Source of the DNA: a virus
Length of the DNA: 22,453 bases
Virus record (IMG/VR): IMGVR_UViG_3300020459_000074
Coordinates: 1-22,453 of that record
Reading direction: 5' to 3' (one strand)
Part shown: piece by piece, positions 160 to 6,265 of the stretch
How the letters are laid out: each line of letters starts with the position of its first letter
How positions within the stretch are numbered: the stretch's first letter is position 1
Made by a program: the position numbers and the translations under genes
The notes under the pieces: generated by a model
Told to the model about the DNA's origin: nothing
Databases searched by the model: none
Seen by the model: the letters and a program-made list of their open reading frames with translations, nothing else

Positions 160-834
160 CTAGGGTTTATCAAATAGGACGTTACTTATATATTTATCTG
201 CCCACTCTTCACTAAACCACGCACTGAGCACTGCTTTAGTTTTCTTATTCTTCATCTGTGAGGTAGAATACCAACACTGGTCATCTAATCTTAGCATAGT
301 GCCAACCCAGTCATCAGAGTGTTTTGCATTCATGACGTTTTTATTGTATATGTTTAGATACTCGAGAACTACCTGATAGAATTTTGTCTGCTCATCTTCT
401 GTTTTTAGTCTTGCAAACTTACAGTATGGTGAGAATATCTCACCCCATTCGGGTAATTGACGATTATCTTTAAATTGATATAACTTACTAATAGGTGCTA
501 TGCTATCACTCCAGTCAACTCCTTCCACATATGATATATCTACTATGGCAGCAGTAACCCCTGCAGGAGTTTGTATTATATCTGCACCAAATATAGGTAG
601 GTAGTATGTTGGGTCTGGCCAAAAGACACAGTGGACAATTTGTATTTTATCTGTCTCTGCTGTTTCTAAATGTATCCTACGCAAACCTCTACACTTCCAC
701 ATTTCATTTTTAATAACAACCTTCTCGTGTGTTATTAAGTCATGCAGAGTAGTTATTTGCTCTAACTCTGGGAAGTCTGCAATACTATATCTAATTAGAT
801 TAGCAATGTCATCACGTATTTTTGGATAATGCAT
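160..834 (-). CDS. pcyA: Phycocyanobilin:ferredoxin oxidoreductase PcyA
   Basis: This 224-residue ferredoxin-dependent bilin reductase reduces biliverdin IXalpha to phycocyanobilin, the chromophore of phycobiliproteins and cyanobacterial phytochromes. In cyanophages it acts as an auxiliary metabolic gene in the infected cell. Family signatures are visible in order: RRIHLE (His55, Glu57), IVHCVFWPDP (His68), LPIFGADI (Asp85), PAGVTAAIVDIS, LPEWGEIFSPYC (from 127) and the C-terminal ISNVLFD. His55, Glu57, His68 and Asp85 correspond to His74, Glu76, His88 and Asp105 of Synechocystis PcyA, so the bilin-protonation residues are all kept. Motifs such as AAIVDIS and WGEIFSPYC fit PcyA better than PebA, PebB or PebS. 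It is about 20 residues shorter at the N-terminus than the Synechocystis enzyme, and its start lies 23 bases inside an upstream small membrane ORF. The stop codon touches the gp17 start. No heme oxygenase, which supplies the substrate, is in this window. Confidence 0.93.
   Translation of the reverse strand: MHYPKIRDDIANLIRYSIADFPELEQITTLHDLITHEKVVIKNEMWKCRGLRRIHLETAETDKIQIVHCVFWPDPTYYLPIFGADIIQTPAGVTAAIVDISYVEGVDWSDSIAPISKLYQFKDNRQLPEWGEIFSPYCKFARLKTEDEQTKFYQVVLEYLNIYNKNVMNAKHSDDWVGTMLRLDDQCWYSTSQMKNKKTKAVLSAWFSEEWADKYISNVLFDKP
191..198 (-). promoter_or_regulatory. Late promoter motif GATAAATA ahead of gp17
   Basis: GATAAATA on the minus strand inside the last codons of pcyA, 32 bases upstream of the gp17 ATG. 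Its location is what would be needed to uncouple late terminase expression from the accessory genes. Confidence 0.5.
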
Positions 835-1194: not shown

Positions 1195-1659
1195 TTAACC
1201 TTCATTAAGTGTGCCTAGACCTCTACGAATTTCACGTAGCTCTTCAAAATTCTTATTTTTCGTGCCCCCATCATACTCCCACGCATACCCCTCAGCAATC
1301 ATTTGCTCGTTGAGAGATACATCCTCATCACCAATATATAACCAACCAAGCAGACGACCATACTTACCCATCCCTCCTTTGAGTTCAGTTCGTATAGTAA
1401 GCTCATGCTCTCCATTGATTGTATCCTCTAGTGTGCCCTTCATCCAGTTTGTTGCATCAATACCGAGTGCCTTTTCTTCTAAGTCTCTCGTCCTTTTCTC
1501 AGGTGTATCGATACCCGCAATTCTTACACGCTCGTGCTTATAGATGTCAAATCCTAAGTCGATAACGACGTCAATGGTATCACCATCAACTACTTTTTTT
1601 ATCTCCGTCACTCGGAAGTTGTAACAACTCTTCCTGCTTGGGGGTGTCATCGCTCCCAT
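1195..1659 (-). CDS. Thermonuclease-family (SNase-like) endonuclease
   Basis: This is a staphylococcal-nuclease-fold protein, a Ca2+-dependent phosphodiesterase of DNA/RNA in characterised relatives. The signature VVDGDTIDVV is followed by VRIAGIDTPE and KYGRLLGWLY. Counting from the start chosen here, Asp27, Arg46, Asp51, Glu54 and Arg102 match the Asp21, Arg35, Asp40, Glu43 and Arg87 active-site set of the staphylococcal enzyme. The C-terminal NEQMIAEGYAWEYDGG is also typical of the family. I chose the ATG at 1659 because GGAG lies 7 bases upstream; an in-frame ATG at 1680 adds seven residues (MHIRRWI) with a poorer site. No secretion signal is seen, so it probably acts inside the infected cell, for example in host DNA degradation or nucleotide recycling (inference). 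It overlaps the 3' end of a small membrane ORF by 74 bases. Confidence 0.9.
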   Translation of the reverse strand: MGAMTPPSRKSCYNFRVTEIKKVVDGDTIDVVIDLGFDIYKHERVRIAGIDTPEKRTRDLEEKALGIDATNWMKGTLEDTINGEHELTIRTELKGGMGKYGRLLGWLYIGDEDVSLNEQMIAEGYAWEYDGGTKNKNFEELREIRRGLGTLNEG

Positions 1660-1762
1660 AATCCATCTCCGAATATGCATACTTCATTATATATGCGATA
1701 ATAATAGTGACTGCTATCACCAATATTAACACCATTACATTTACGGAATGGACGACGGTCAT
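1586..1762 (-). CDS. Small membrane protein with charged tail (58 aa), overlaps nuclease
   Basis: A 58-codon ORF whose ATG overlaps the stop of the upstream 27-codon ORF (ATGA at 1762-1759). The N-terminal third is strongly hydrophobic (residues 7-26, ending IAVTIIIAYI), giving one membrane span. It is followed by an acidic, polar tail (SEMDYGSDD, then QEELLQLPSDGDKKSS). The tail is encoded in a different frame over the first 74 bases of the nuclease gene. The sensible topology and the coupled start argue that it is translated. The long overlap with an obviously functional gene lowers confidence. No family is recognised. Confidence 0.5.
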   Translation of the reverse strand: MTVVHSVNVMVLILVIAVTIIIAYIMKYAYSEMDYGSDDTPKQEELLQLPSDGDKKSS

Positions 1763-3296: not shown

Positions 3297-3437
3297 CTAT
3301 AATGCAATAATAATCATACCAATAATAAGACCTTTGGTAAATGCTAACCAAAGCATTTGGTAGTCGGATAGATTAAATTTATCTTGCCACTTTTTAGCAA
3401 GGTCTCTATCCCATTCTAGAAATCGTTTAATTAACAA
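3297..3437 (-). CDS. Small membrane-tail protein with apparent TTG start (46 aa)
   Basis: An open frame of 46 codons lies in the apparent gap between the DUF6321-like gene and the 62-residue membrane gene. It has no ATG near its start. Two TTG codons occur at 3443 and 3437, and GAGG sits 8 bases before the second, which I chose. The product reads IKRFLEWDRDLAKKWQDKF, then SDYQMLWLAFTKGL and a hydrophobic end IIGMIIIAL: an amphipathic charged N-terminus with a C-terminal membrane anchor. It resembles small uncharacterised proteins of related phages as I remember them (unverified). It overlaps the upstream gene by 7 bases and ends 2 bases before the next ATG. A GATAAATA late motif is 20 bases upstream. 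Confidence 0.6.
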   Translation of the reverse strand: MLIKRFLEWDRDLAKKWQDKFNLSDYQMLWLAFTKGLIIGMIIIAL

Positions 3438-3718
3438 TTCCAAGCCCTCAAAGATTTATTTATCCTGCTATCAGGGTCACTAGCAGTTTTTTTAGAAGTC
3501 AACTTCTTCTTCATACCCTTCATCCTAGCACAAAAACTAGCACGTCGTGGGTTACCAACTTTTTTACTAGGTGCTTTTAAATCGCTACCTGGGTTAGCAC
3601 GCTCATAAGACTTGCGACCCTTTTCATTGAGTCCGCCTTCCTTATTTTTTCCTGCTTTCTTTGTCCATGCTTCTTCAGCAATGAATTGATTGAAAGACTT
3701 TATCCTGCTGCTTGACAT
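3431..3718 (-). CDS. DUF6321-like basic protein with capsid-targeting-like N-terminus (95 aa)
   Basis: A 95-residue, very basic protein. Residues 14-70 carry the pattern I associate with DUF6321: WTKKAGKNKEGGLNEKGRKS, then ANPGSDLKAPSKKVGNPRR and SFCARMKGMKKKL. The N-terminal extension MSSSRIKSFNQFIAEEAW closely resembles the capsid-targeting peptide of T4 internal proteins (IPIII begins MKTYQEFIAEA), which the prohead protease gp21 removes after the Glu of I-A-E. This suggests an internal head protein packaged with DNA and possibly injected. Its ATG lies 19 bases inside the upstream Cys/His gene. Strong positive charge fits nucleic-acid binding; the mature function is unknown. Confidence 0.75.
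   Translation of the reverse strand: MSSSRIKSFNQFIAEEAWTKKAGKNKEGGLNEKGRKSYERANPGSDLKAPSKKVGNPRRASFCARMKGMKKKLTSKKTASDPDSRINKSLRAWNC
3457..3464 (-). promoter_or_regulatory. Late promoter motif GATAAATA (T4 type)
   Basis: GATAAATA on the minus strand matches T4 late TATAAATA at seven of eight positions. It lies in the 3' end of the DUF6321-like gene, 20 bases upstream of the proposed TTG start at 3437, and could start a late transcript for the small-gene run. Confidence 0.45.
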
Positions 3719-3834
3719 GTTGGATTCTTAGGACAGTTTTCTTCGTGTTTTTCTATCCATGTATATGGTCTCCAATGCCCTTGCGGTGCAGTGATTCCAC
3801 AGTAACGACAGACTTTACTACGCTCTTCAGCCAT
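3700..3834 (-). CDS. Small Cys/His (zinc-ribbon-like) protein (44 aa)
   Basis: The ATG at 3834 is preferred because GGAG lies nine bases upstream and the protein then begins cleanly as MAEERSKVCRYCGITAPQGH; a longer in-frame start at 3927 would overlap the upstream gene by over 100 bases. The arrangement C-x2-C, a Trp/Tyr-rich middle (HWRPYTWIEKHEENC), then KNPTC gives four Cys and two His in 44 residues, consistent with binding one zinc ion. Such mini zinc fingers often bind nucleic acid or act as protein adaptors; which applies here is unknown. It overlaps the DUF3008 gene by 8 bases and the DUF6321-like gene by 19 bases. Confidence 0.7.
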   Translation of the reverse strand: MAEERSKVCRYCGITAPQGHWRPYTWIEKHEENCPKNPTCQAAG

Positions 3835-5725
3835 AATGATACGCTCCTTTTTTGGATTTGTTAGGTAGTTTACCACTCCTGACTTTATCGCCAGAAGTTT
3901 GACCCATACCAGATGGGTTAGACCCACCTTTAGATTTACCTACGTTTATTGACTTCCCAGGTTTCTTGCTCTCGGTATCATGCAATCTTGCGGGTTTCTT
4001 TTTATCCTTAGTGATTACAGATTCTTGTCCGTGCTTTCTACCTAGACGACGCATGGTTTTTCCAAAACGACGTTTTGACATTTTATCAGGTTTTGATGTC
4101 TGATAGGATACTTCTGTGCCAGTTTCACCACTGTCATACTTGTATTTGCCAACACCTTTTTTGTAACCAATTCCTTTCTTTTTAAGGTCTTTTTCTAGCC
4201 CCTTTCTAGAGGCTTGGTTCTTTTTTTCGTCGCCACCTCTATCTGCAGATATATTACCTGTAACAGAAGTTTTAGACTTATGTAACATTCTAGCAGTATT
4301 ATTGCCTTCTGTAAAGTAGTTCTTAAAACTTACGTGCTCATACTTGTTTCTACCAGATGGTGAAGGTTGTGTGCTATCAAAATGAGGATTGTTTTTAGCA
4401 GCATCAGACTGTGCTTCTCTCTTCTTAGTCAGCATCTTTGCTTTCTTATCAAGATACTTCTTCATAGCACCTGATGCTTTTCCTGACCCTTTGTATAGAC
4501 CATAAGAAGTGCCTTCGTTTGCAGGCAAGAAACCAACATACTTATTCTGTTGCTTGTCTCTCATTATCTTAGCAGCAATAGCACCCGCATCTCTACCAGT
4601 TGTTTTCTTTGCTTTTACTTTAGCTGCTCTCTTTATCATACCCATCACACCTTCTGATGTGAGTTTGTCAGTTGCTTTCAAGACACCATCCTGTCTTTTC
4701 TTTGTCTTATCATAGTCACCTTTTACAGCACTTGTTGCCATGTCTGTAGATGCTTTCTTAATGTAGCTACCTAAAGTTTTCTTACTTACTTCTTTGATAA
4801 CTTCTTCTTTTTTATATGCAGGCACTTTAGCACCTTTCACACCACGACGTGCTTTGTGCTCTTCTCTACGCTTGTCAATAGTTTTACCTCTCTTACCCTC
4901 AGGGTCAAACATTCCAGGATCATCATGCCCAGGTCCGCTTCTCCTATAGTTTCTGATAGATGCTTTACCATAATCACTACGTCCTTTATCTACCTTTGCT
5001 TCATCAACTCCTTGCATCTGTCCTCTTCTATTCTTTGCTGCAACCTGTAGAGGAAGTCCACCAGTGTTATCTTTCTTTTTCACATGGACTGCTTTATGTT
5101 GCTCATATGCCCCTTCTACATTAAGTGTCTTAGGATAGTCTTTCTCACCTGGCCTTGCTTTTCTCTCGCCACGTTTTCTCTTTGCATGGATGTTATCCCA
5201 AAGACCTTTCTTCTTTTCTTCAAGGGTTTCTTCTTTTGTTACCCCTGCCTTTGCTCTATTTTTCTCGGCAAAACTTTTGATAATCATTTTCATTTTAGCT
5301 CGTTTACCATAAGGGTTAGCACCTTCGCCCATTATTTTACCACCATCTTTTCTGATTCTGTCCTTGACTAACTCAAGTGCAGACTTACCTTTTGCTGCTT
5401 TCTGTGCAGCAGTTTGCCCTTTCATCTTTTTATCAGACCTAGGCATAGTCGTAGCATCCTTCTTTTTGGGAGAAGAAATATCAATTCCAGCTACTGCCAT
5501 CTTGTCTTTGTAATGGTCGTAACCTTCTTCGTTTACAGATTCTTTAGACATTTTTTTCTCAGGTAAACCTTTATGTTTAGTTGATGCAAACTTCTTTGCA
5601 TCTTTCATTTTTATGCTGGAAGCAACTCTGGCAACCTCAGGTGAGGCAGCTTTCGCTTGACCCTCCTTTTGAGCTTGTCGAACCATCCCGAAGAATCTTT
5701 GTTGTTTTCTCGAGACTGCGGGCAT
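3827..5725 (-). CDS. Large lysine-rich modular protein with N-terminal DUF3008-like domain (632 aa)
   Basis: A 632-residue, extremely basic, low-complexity protein built from separable modules. Residues 1-58 (start MPAVSRKQQRFFGMVRQAQK) match the DUF3008 pattern. Residues 67-134 hold a YDHYKDKMAVAG segment, and 173-199 hold KKGLWDNIHAKRKRGERKA. Residues 312-356 hold VSKKTLGSYIKKAS with KATDKL. Residues 463-473 (HVSFKNYFTEG) resemble an internal capsid-targeting peptide. Residues 487-575, with NQASRKGLEKDL, a G-x-Y strand and GRKHGQESVI, resemble DUF3293. Junctions between modules repeatedly carry a hydrophobic-x-Glu or similar Glu site (for example VNE66, LEE170, VDE242, IKE312, FTE473), as expected for gp21-type prohead protease cleavage. 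The start is supported by GGAGG 10 bases upstream. It probably is a head-internal protein; the enzymatic role, if any, is unknown. Confidence 0.8.
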   Translation of the reverse strand: MPAVSRKQQRFFGMVRQAQKEGQAKAASPEVARVASSIKMKDAKKFASTKHKGLPEKKMSKESVNEEGYDHYKDKMAVAGIDISSPKKKDATTMPRSDKKMKGQTAAQKAAKGKSALELVKDRIRKDGGKIMGEGANPYGKRAKMKMIIKSFAEKNRAKAGVTKEETLEEKKKGLWDNIHAKRKRGERKARPGEKDYPKTLNVEGAYEQHKAVHVKKKDNTGGLPLQVAAKNRRGQMQGVDEAKVDKGRSDYGKASIRNYRRSGPGHDDPGMFDPEGKRGKTIDKRREEHKARRGVKGAKVPAYKKEEVIKEVSKKTLGSYIKKASTDMATSAVKGDYDKTKKRQDGVLKATDKLTSEGVMGMIKRAAKVKAKKTTGRDAGAIAAKIMRDKQQNKYVGFLPANEGTSYGLYKGSGKASGAMKKYLDKKAKMLTKKREAQSDAAKNNPHFDSTQPSPSGRNKYEHVSFKNYFTEGNNTARMLHKSKTSVTGNISADRGGDEKKNQASRKGLEKDLKKKGIGYKKGVGKYKYDSGETGTEVSYQTSKPDKMSKRRFGKTMRRLGRKHGQESVITKDKKKPARLHDTESKKPGKSINVGKSKGGSNPSGMGQTSGDKVRSGKLPNKSKKGAYHYG

Positions 5726-5731
5726 TCCTGA

Positions 5732-6265
5732 TTATCCTCCGACAATCTGTACTTGCTCAACGATAACATTGGCAGAACCTGCAGTAAGTTTAACTGCTTT
5801 CTGAATGACAGGGACTGTGCCTGCTTCGACATCTGCTGATGATAGTGCGTAGTCTGCACTTGCTGCTGATGAGTCATAATCTGTTGTAATTGTTGTATCT
5901 GTGACAGCAGTAATTTTCTTACCACCGCTAGCTGCTGATACGAAATCCGAGGTGAATGCAGTATCACTATTTGCAGCAGTAGAAATGTAATCTCCAACGA
6001 CAAATCTATGAGCAGGAGTGCCTCCGCCTAATACGGTAACTACCATAGCGGCTGCATCTGTTGCTGCTTTAATTTGAGCATTCTTTGATTTACCTACTGA
6101 CAAAAGAATTGCTTCCCCTGCAGCAAGAGTTATAGCAGGTCCTGCATCAATCGTTAGAGTTGAAGCACTTGCTGCATACGCACGAATCACGCCAGATTTT
6201 ACCGTGATATAGCCTGAGCCAGACGCGGTAATTGTTTGTGTGTCAATGACATTTAATACTGACAT
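5732..6265 (-). CDS. Beta-rich virion structural protein (177 aa)
   Basis: A 177-residue Ala/Thr/Ser/Val-rich protein with alternating short beta strands and no Cys or Trp, typical of phage head- or tail-decorating proteins. It starts MSVLNVIDTQTITASGSGYI. The segment RFVVGDYISTAANSD followed by AVTDTTITTDYDSS suggests a small beta-barrel or Ig-like insert, and the C-terminus ends VEQVQIVGG. AAGGAG lies 12 bases before the ATG, and a GATAAATA late motif is 26 bases upstream, overlapping the gp16 stop. It is followed six bases later by the DUF3008-like gene. A structural role is inferred from composition and from its place beside the head-completion genes; I cannot name its T4 counterpart. Confidence 0.65.
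   Translation of the reverse strand: MSVLNVIDTQTITASGSGYITVKSGVIRAYAASASTLTIDAGPAITLAAGEAILLSVGKSKNAQIKAATDAAAMVVTVLGGGTPAHRFVVGDYISTAANSDTAFTSDFVSAASGGKKITAVTDTTITTDYDSSAASADYALSSADVEAGTVPVIQKAVKLTAGSANVIVEQVQIVGG

What the first reader, a model, noticed from the sequence alone, without database searches (positions are those of the whole stretch)
3827..5725. Candidate head-internal polyprotein with prohead-protease sites between modules
The 632-aa Lys-rich protein is a string of modules (DUF3008-like, GLWDNIH box, KKTLGSYIKKAS box, DUF3293-like). Near module junctions there are hydrophobic-x-Glu or similar sites: VNE66, MGE134, LEE170, NVE204, VDE242, IKE312, ANE404, FTE473. T4 gp21 cleaves after Glu in L/I-x-E contexts in head precursors. 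The protein may be packaged intact and cut into several basic peptides that enter the host with DNA. A programmed, protease-processed injection cocktail of this kind would be new to me.
Basis: partly seen in the sequence, partly recalled or inferred. Interest (0 to 1): 0.8.

Follow-up and report, generated by a model that had tools for sequence, protein, structure and literature searches.

The report
Packaged phage polyprotein ending in SAM lyase
A marine cyanobacterial virus encodes a long patchwork protein whose pieces appear to be cut apart by the virus's own head-assembly protease and injected into the host with the DNA; the last piece is almost certainly an enzyme that destroys SAM, the fuel of bacterial DNA-methylation defences.

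Summary
The 632-aa Lys-rich mosaic protein is real, but on the minus strand (3827-5725), in a fragment of a T4-like cyanomyovirus, just after gp16. In this protein alone, hydrophobic-x-Glu sites are no more common than chance (8 vs 5.7). Across 241 non-redundant module junctions from relatives they are strongly enriched: 187 vs 100.8 expected, with hydrophobic residues at P3 only (62%, background 26%). Two listed sites (NVE204, ANE404) do not fit. FTE473 is the key site: it ends a T4-type capsid-targeting sequence (CTS; VSFKNYFTE|G), conserved mid-chain before the last module and N-terminal where that module is a stand-alone gene (P-SSM2). The last module is a SAM lyase (Pfam PF23780; fold matches T3 SAMase and Svi3-3; catalytic residues invariant). 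A SAM lyase with an N-terminal CTS was found in S-CREM2 virions by published mass spectrometry, as were other CTS-headed enzymes and mosaic proteins sharing modules of this family. Best reading: a mosaic internal head protein, targeted by its CTS, cut by the gp21-type protease, delivering SAM lyase plus small basic peptides. Cleavage itself is not shown, and one direct homologue (S-SZBM1_194) was not detected in its virion.

The parts
3827..5725 (-). Whole 632-aa mosaic precursor (pI 10.2, 25% K+R)
   Evidence: ORF; homologues in the same locus of Kyanoviridae; phrog_26015 E=2.8e-126
5528..5725 (-). Module 1, aa 1-66: DUF3008-like (MPAVSRKQQRFFG...), ending VNE66
   Evidence: PHROG matches; homologue S-SZBM1_194 gives PF11450 DUF3008 E=0.0046, below the curated cut-off
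5324..5527 (-). Module 2, aa 67-134: EGYDHYKDKM box; site VNE|E before it
   Evidence: 14/14 non-redundant junctions carry [ILVMF]xE; stand-alone with CTS MKTYSDFISE|EGYDHYRD in L097
5216..5323 (-). Module 3, aa 135-170: NPYGKRAKMKMIIKSFAEKNR; site MGE|G before it
   Evidence: 4/6 junctions
5000..5215 (-). Module 4, aa 171-242: KKKGLWDNIHAKRKRGER...; site LEE|K before it
   Evidence: 29/29 junctions; stand-alone with CTS MKTYTQFIEE|GKKGLWDNIH in L303
4790..4999 (-). Module 5, aa 243-312: AKVDKGRSDYGKASIRNYRR...; site VDE|A before it
   Evidence: recurs in P-RSM6, P-RSM1, P-TIM40; 2/3 non-redundant junctions
4514..4789 (-). Module 6, aa 313-404: VSKKTLGSYIKKAS...GRDAGAIAAKIM; site IKE|V before it
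   Evidence: 8/8 junctions
4334..4513 (-). Module 7, aa 405-464: GTSYGLYKGSGK...; border ANE404 is a poor site
   Evidence: only 4/18 junctions of this module carry [ILVMF]xE
4307..4333 (-). Internal T4-type capsid-targeting sequence VSFKNYFTE473 with cleavage-type end
   Evidence: 51 distinct upstream 12-mers conserve the motif while their flanks differ; V465 is GTA and cannot be a start codon; N-terminal in P-SSM2_114 MRTFQEFLQLCE|G
3830..4306 (-). Module 8, aa 474-632: S-adenosylmethionine lyase (SAMase)
   Evidence: PF23780 29.6 bits, cut-off 28; AF2 model best matches T3 SAMase 7ock Z 11.5 and Svi3-3 6znb Z 9.4; G526, Y528, E538, Q567, E568 invariant in 29 homologues
3431..3718 (-). Next gene: DUF6321 protein, 95 aa, with its own CTS (K7-E15 KSFNQFIAE at 3674-3700)
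   Evidence: PF19846 E=3.4e-24; the same module is fused at the end of mosaic proteins in P-SSM2, P-RSM1, S-SM1 and S-CREM2

Best explanation
The ORF is a mosaic precursor of internal head proteins of a T4-like cyanomyovirus. It is drawn into the prohead core by a T4-type capsid-targeting sequence (CTS), here in the middle of the chain at aa 465-473, possibly helped by its other modules. The gp21-type prohead protease then cuts after hydrophobic-x-Glu: most probably at E473, likely at E66, E170, E242 and E312, and perhaps at E134. This frees a 17-kDa SAM lyase and several 4-10-kDa basic peptides that stay with the packaged DNA and enter the host with it. The SAM lyase destroys SAM at time zero and so blunts SAM-dependent restriction or BREX-type defence (as T3 SAMase does when made early). 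Shown here: the modules, the conserved CTS, the junction enrichment, the SAM-lyase family, fold and catalytic residues, and published virion detection of related CTS proteins. Inferred: cleavage, packaging of this protein, injection, anti-restriction role.
For: CTS consensus and L/I-x-E cleavage come from T4 work (PMC9026906). The CTS before the SAM-lyase module is conserved in 51 distinct contexts, mostly inside longer open frames (44 of 52 by the mechanical criterion), and it is N-terminal in the stand-alone P-SSM2 and AG-345-F15 genes. Junction test: 187/241 vs 100.8 expected, z=11.9, P3 62% hydrophobic vs P2 24% and P4 29%. Four modules exist as CTS-headed stand-alone ORFs. S-CREM2: the MS-detected SAM hydrolase gp6 (19 peptides) is PF23780, E=2.3e-19, behind MKDFDSFLEE; the MS-detected kinase, cytidylyltransferase, Cas9-like protein, gp13 and gp136 also carry the CTS; CTS motif on 7/52 detected vs 4/167 undetected proteins, p=0.0045. 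MS-detected S-CREM2 gp137 and gp160 share modules with mosaics of this locus. The relatives encode gp21. All predicted fragments are basic, pI 9.8-10.5. SAM lyase.
Against: No cleavage datum exists. S-SZBM1_194, a direct homologue with about 30 observable tryptic peptides, is not among the 30 proteins found in S-SZBM1 virions. In T4 the CTS is N-terminal; I know of no demonstration that a mid-chain CTS works. YGLYKG and VYWSSEAL module borders lack the motif. Module anchors were chosen after seeing the sequences, and the junctions are not fully independent. S-SZBM1 alone shows no excess of CTS among detected proteins (1/30 vs 6/188).
Confidence: 0.62

Rival explanations
1. Single-cargo reading: only E473 is cut. 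The SAM lyase is the packaged and injected product (a fused T4-type internal protein), and everything upstream is a core or propeptide part, or one unprocessed basic DNA-binding protein. The other junction motifs are relics of former CTS or N-terminal ends of genes that were fused.
For: Only E473 has the full CTS. Stand-alone CTS forms suggest that modules were once separate genes, so fusion alone would leave x-x-E ends behind. YGLYKG and VYWSSEAL borders lack the motif.
Against: P3 hydrophobicity is kept at most junctions while the rest of the CTS is lost and the residues vary (L, I, V, F, M in many codons), which looks like maintained selection for the site itself.
Confidence: 0.24
2. Not a head protein: a modular basic protein that works in the infected cell, its Glu-rich linkers only marking places where modules recombine.
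For: S-SZBM1_194 not detected in virions. DUF6321 also occurs, without a CTS, in a T7-like podovirus.
Against: CTS conservation before the SAM lyase; CTS-headed stand-alone copies; MS detection of related mosaic proteins in S-CREM2; S-SM1 flag on T4-GC119. P3 codon diversity argues against DNA-level recombination signals.
Confidence: 0.1
3. The last module is made separately by internal translation initiation at the CTS rather than by proteolysis.
For: A minority of fused copies have ATG at the start of the CTS.
Against: In the window the codon is GTA, and more than half of the copies have no start codon there. The motif's Glu and aromatic residues are conserved regardless.
Confidence: 0.04

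Closest known systems
T4 internal head proteins (IPI, IPII, IPIII, Alt) with capsid-targeting sequence, cut by gp21
   Same: Aromatic-x-x-aromatic-hydrophobic-x-Glu targeting and cleavage motif, small basic products, T4-type prohead protease in the relatives, anti-defence cargo (IPI* blocks a restriction enzyme)
   Different: Here the CTS lies mid-chain in a multi-module precursor with further hydrophobic-x-Glu junctions; the cargo is a SAM lyase
Phage SAM lyases (T3 SAMase, Svi3-3; Pfam PF23780)
   Same: Family score above cut-off, same fold, same catalytic Gly-x-Tyr, Glu and Gln-Glu/Asp
   Different: T3 SAMase is an early-expressed stand-alone protein; this one is fused behind a CTS in a mosaic protein of the structural gene region. 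S-CREM2 gp6 is a virion-found relative with N-terminal CTS
Ejection/inner-body proteins of giant phages (phiKZ, SPN3US)
   Same: Multiple head proteins cut after short x-x-Glu motifs by a gp21-like protease (PMC5694885)
   Different: Different motif (S/A-x-E) and long propeptides; I found no description of shuffled small modules there
Polyvalent proteins (Iyer et al. 2017, PMC5512222)
   Same: Many-domain proteins thought to be packaged, cut into units and injected against host defences
   Different: They use an embedded peptidase domain; none is found here, and the authors report few in cyanobacteria

Membership tests
SAM lyase (PF23780) | Profile score above curated cut-off | tested here: met
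   29.6 bits vs 28 for the window module; 32.6-33.5 for P-SSM2, S-SZBM1 and AG-345-F15
SAM lyase (PF23780) | Fold of T3 SAMase / Svi3-3 | tested here: met
   AF2 model (mean pLDDT 66, higher in the core); the four top rows are phage SAM lyases, Z 11.5, 11.0, 9.4, 8.7, unrelated rows at 8.4 and below
SAM lyase (PF23780) | Conserved Gly-x-Tyr, catalytic Glu, Gln-Glu/Asp (Svi3-3 G56, Y58, E69, Q104, E105) | tested here: met
   G526, Y528, E538, Q567, E568 invariant in 29 homologues; matched to T3 SAMase through S-CREM2 gp6
SAM lyase (PF23780) | Enzymatic activity on SAM | not testable with these tools
   needs an assay
T4-type internal head protein | CTS motif (aromatic 4, aromatic 7, hydrophobic 8, Glu 10) | tested here: met
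   VSFKNYFTE and KSFNQFIAE; conserved in 51 contexts
T4-type internal head protein | CTS at the N-terminus | tested here: not met
   aa 465-473 of 632 in this protein; met in P-SSM2_114 and in the neighbouring DUF6321 gene
T4-type internal head protein | Present in virions | tested here: inconclusive
   related CTS and mosaic proteins detected in S-CREM2; direct homologue S-SZBM1_194 not detected
T4-type internal head protein | Cleavage by gp21 | not testable with these tools
   sites present; gp21 encoded in relatives, outside this fragment
Polyvalent protein | Embedded peptidase domain that releases the units | tested here: not met
   no Pfam, PADLOC or NCBIfam peptidase match in the 632 aa

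The most novel reading that the evidence does not exclude
Cyanomyoviruses carry shuffled, head-packaged polyproteins in which a prohead-protease motif separates interchangeable effector and DNA-binding modules, so that one gene loads a cocktail (SAM lyase plus several basic peptides) that is cut in the head and injected together. The same CTS marks a wider injected set: SAM lyase, NMNAT-like cytidylyltransferase, kinase, Cas9-like protein.
Probability: 0.5. Interest if true: 0.8.

Novelty: new variant of a known kind. Interest (0 to 1): 0.64.

Why it matters
Virion proteomes of cyanophages keep listing enzymes and unknown Lys-rich proteins with no explanation; the S-CREM2 authors could not exclude contamination. 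A readable CTS on exactly those proteins says they are head cargo and gives a sequence rule for finding injected effectors in abundant marine phages. A SAM lyase delivered with the DNA would act before any phage gene is expressed, and a protease-cut mosaic would explain how such phages swap effectors so freely. Much of it can be tested by re-searching existing mass-spectrometry data.

Tried and rejected
Counting hydrophobic-x-Glu in the window protein alone: not above chance. Internal initiation at the CTS: no start codon in the window. DNA-level recombination signal at junctions: P3 uses all synonymous codons and five residues. DUF3293 as the family of the last module: only E=0.05-0.2, SAM lyase is better. 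PDB sequence search with the module profile: no SAM lyase hit, only the fold search found it; S-CREM2 gp6 does reach T3 SAMase by sequence (E=0.005). Looking for CTS excess among MS-detected proteins of S-SZBM1: none. A first CTS pattern in S-CREM2 limited to 20 residues gave only p=0.057; the wider one gave p=0.0045, so the exact p depends on the pattern, and its 7 detected hits include one chance hit (tail protein gp122). No relevant PADLOC or NCBIfam hit. A Foldseek search against viral models was started and not collected.

Full report
What is there. The finding lies in a 22.4-kb virus fragment of a T4-like cyanomyovirus: tail and neck genes gp13, gp14, gp15, the small terminase, a DUF7243 protein, then the 632-aa ORF on the minus strand (3827-5725), an overlapping Cys-rich small ORF and a DUF6321 protein, followed by further genes including a bilin reductase. 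The same locus in Kyanoviridae isolates (P-RSM6, P-RSM1, S-WAM1, P-TIM40, P-SSM7, S-SZBM1) holds homologues built from shared modules in other orders and numbers.

Chance check. In the protein itself, [ILVMF]-x-E occurs 8 times, 5.7 expected after shuffling (p=0.19); strict [LI]-x-E 3 vs 2.2. Six of the eight sites do sit at the start of a recurrent module.

Family-wide test. Five IMG/VR scans gave about 375 loci. I anchored 12 module cores by residues downstream of the border and kept 241 non-redundant junctions. 187 carry [ILVMF]-x-E within 9 residues upstream; 100.8 are expected from the number of Glu residues and the background rate at other Glu of the same proteins (z=11.9). The signal is position-specific: taking the nearest Glu (first of a run) without looking at its context, the residue two before it is hydrophobic in 62%, against 24% and 29% at the neighbouring positions and 26% at other Glu. 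By family, 10 of 12 modules exceed expectation; YGLYKG (4/18) and VYWSSEAL (0/4) do not. All six Leu, three Ile and four Val codons are used at P3 (there I preferred hydrophobic sites where several Glu were present, so that table is not an unbiased frequency).

The capsid-targeting sequence. T4 internal proteins carry a 10-19-residue N-terminal CTS; residues 4 and 7 matter for targeting, 8 and 10 for cleavage, and gp21 cuts after L/I-x-E (PMC9026906). The last module of the window protein is preceded by VSFKNYFTE|G. Across relatives this stretch reads KTWQEFLDE, KSFKEFLEE, ESFSDFLNE, ITYREFIAE, MSFSAFLAE and so on: 51 distinct 12-mers, motif kept, flanks different. In P-SSM2 and AG-345-F15 the module is a gene of its own and begins MRTFQEFLQLCE|G or MKTFQEFLQLCE|G. 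In the window the CTS cannot be an internal start (GTA). Stand-alone CTS-headed copies also exist for the GLWDNIH, YDHY and DUF6321 modules.

Virion evidence in relatives. In S-CREM2, whose virion proteome lists 52 of 219 proteins (PMC10665884), the CTS pattern in the first 30 residues is on 7 detected and 4 undetected proteins (p=0.0045; 11 observed against 2.25 expected from shuffled N-termini). Six of the seven are clear: SAM hydrolase gp6, Cas9-like gp12, gp13, kinase gp14, gp136 and cytidylyltransferase gp154; the seventh, a tail protein, is a chance hit. These include the enzymes whose presence the authors discussed while leaving contamination open. Mosaic proteins sharing modules with this family, gp137 (DUF6321 end) and gp160, are detected too. 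I infer, without having seen the table, that S-SM1_115, the T4-GC119 member of S-SM1, was among the 41 virion proteins of S-SM1. Against this, S-SZBM1_194, a direct homologue, is not among 30 detected proteins although it has about 30 observable peptides.

The last module is a SAM lyase. It exceeds the Pfam PF23780 cut-off, more clearly in its relatives. The AF2 model from 29 window and IMG/VR sequences (mean pLDDT 66, ordered core) matches T3 SAMase and Svi3-3 best (Foldseek E=3e-4; Z 11.5, 11.0, 9.4, 8.7 against 8.4 and below for unrelated folds). Residues important in active SAMases (G56, Y58, E69, Q104 in Svi3-3; PMC7877911) correspond to G526, Y528, E538 and Q567, invariant in 29 homologues; the register is supported through S-CREM2 gp6 against T3 SAMase. 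S-CREM2 gp6, the virion-found relative, scores E=2.3e-19.

Mechanism. Most likely the precursor joins the prohead core through its CTS, gp21 cuts it at E473 and at several other borders, and the basic fragments (pI 9.8-10.5, 4-17 kDa) remain with the DNA and are injected. The SAM lyase would then deplete SAM before phage genes are read. Packaging, cutting and injection of this protein are inferred. Likely sites: E473 (full CTS), E66, E170, E242, E312; possible: E134; unlikely: E204, E404.

Novelty. CTS, gp21 and SAM lyase are each known. The combination, a shuffled multi-module precursor with a mid-chain CTS and hydrophobic-x-Glu separators, I did not find described: the open-access library holds one paper with both 'cyanophage' and 'capsid targeting sequence', a T4 review. 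Absence from that library is not proof of novelty. It works like T4-type internal head proteins and I rate it a new variant of that kind; as a strict member it fails the N-terminal-CTS criterion.

Noticed in passing
L009:3837-13331 and L008:30609-31469 (S-CREM2): The Cas9-like protein, APH-like kinase, SAM lyase and cytidylyltransferase found in S-CREM2 virions all carry a T4-type CTS (Cas9 at about residues 19-25, FASFMAE); a phage-packaged Cas9-like nuclease with a head-targeting signal deserves its own look.
   Followed up: partly
L162:1492-2766, L242:3731-5005, L167:2793-4004, L102:4457-5680, L135:4087-5295: About 400-aa NMNAT/cytidylyltransferase-like ORFs (PF01467) in IMG/VR contigs begin with a CTS (MKSFFQFLTE, MKSLSNFFGE, MKLSQFLSE, MKKFSDFLTE, MKNFAQFITE), as do the virion-found cytidylyltransferases of S-CREM2 and S-SZBM1.
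   Followed up: partly
L323:6242-6568 and similar ORFs in L287, L346, L347, L382, L384, L389; L007 S-SZBM1_191: A family of about 105-aa proteins of unknown function with a CTS (MKSFKQFLSE|SVNISGDFNG...) is a further candidate injected protein.
   Followed up: no
window 3700-3927 (-): 75-aa ORF with a Cys/His pattern (CRYCGITAPQGHWRPYTWIEKHEENCP) overlapping the 3' end of the SAM-lyase module; a similar small ORF overlaps in S-WAM1 (P090810_100).
   Followed up: no
L394:2865-3119 (P-SCSP1d): A DUF6321-like protein lies between the major capsid and tail tube genes of a T7-like Prochlorococcus podovirus, without a CTS, so this module is also used in an unrelated phage group.
   Followed up: partly
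window 160-834 (-) and 1195-1680 (-): Ferredoxin-dependent bilin reductase (PF05996) and a staphylococcal-nuclease-like protein (PF00565) in the region that in relatives lies between gp16 and gp17.
   Followed up: no
window 5732-6265 (-): DUF7243 protein directly upstream; the protein in that position in S-SZBM1 (S-SZBM1_195, 87 aa) is among the most abundant virion proteins by emPAI.
   Followed up: no
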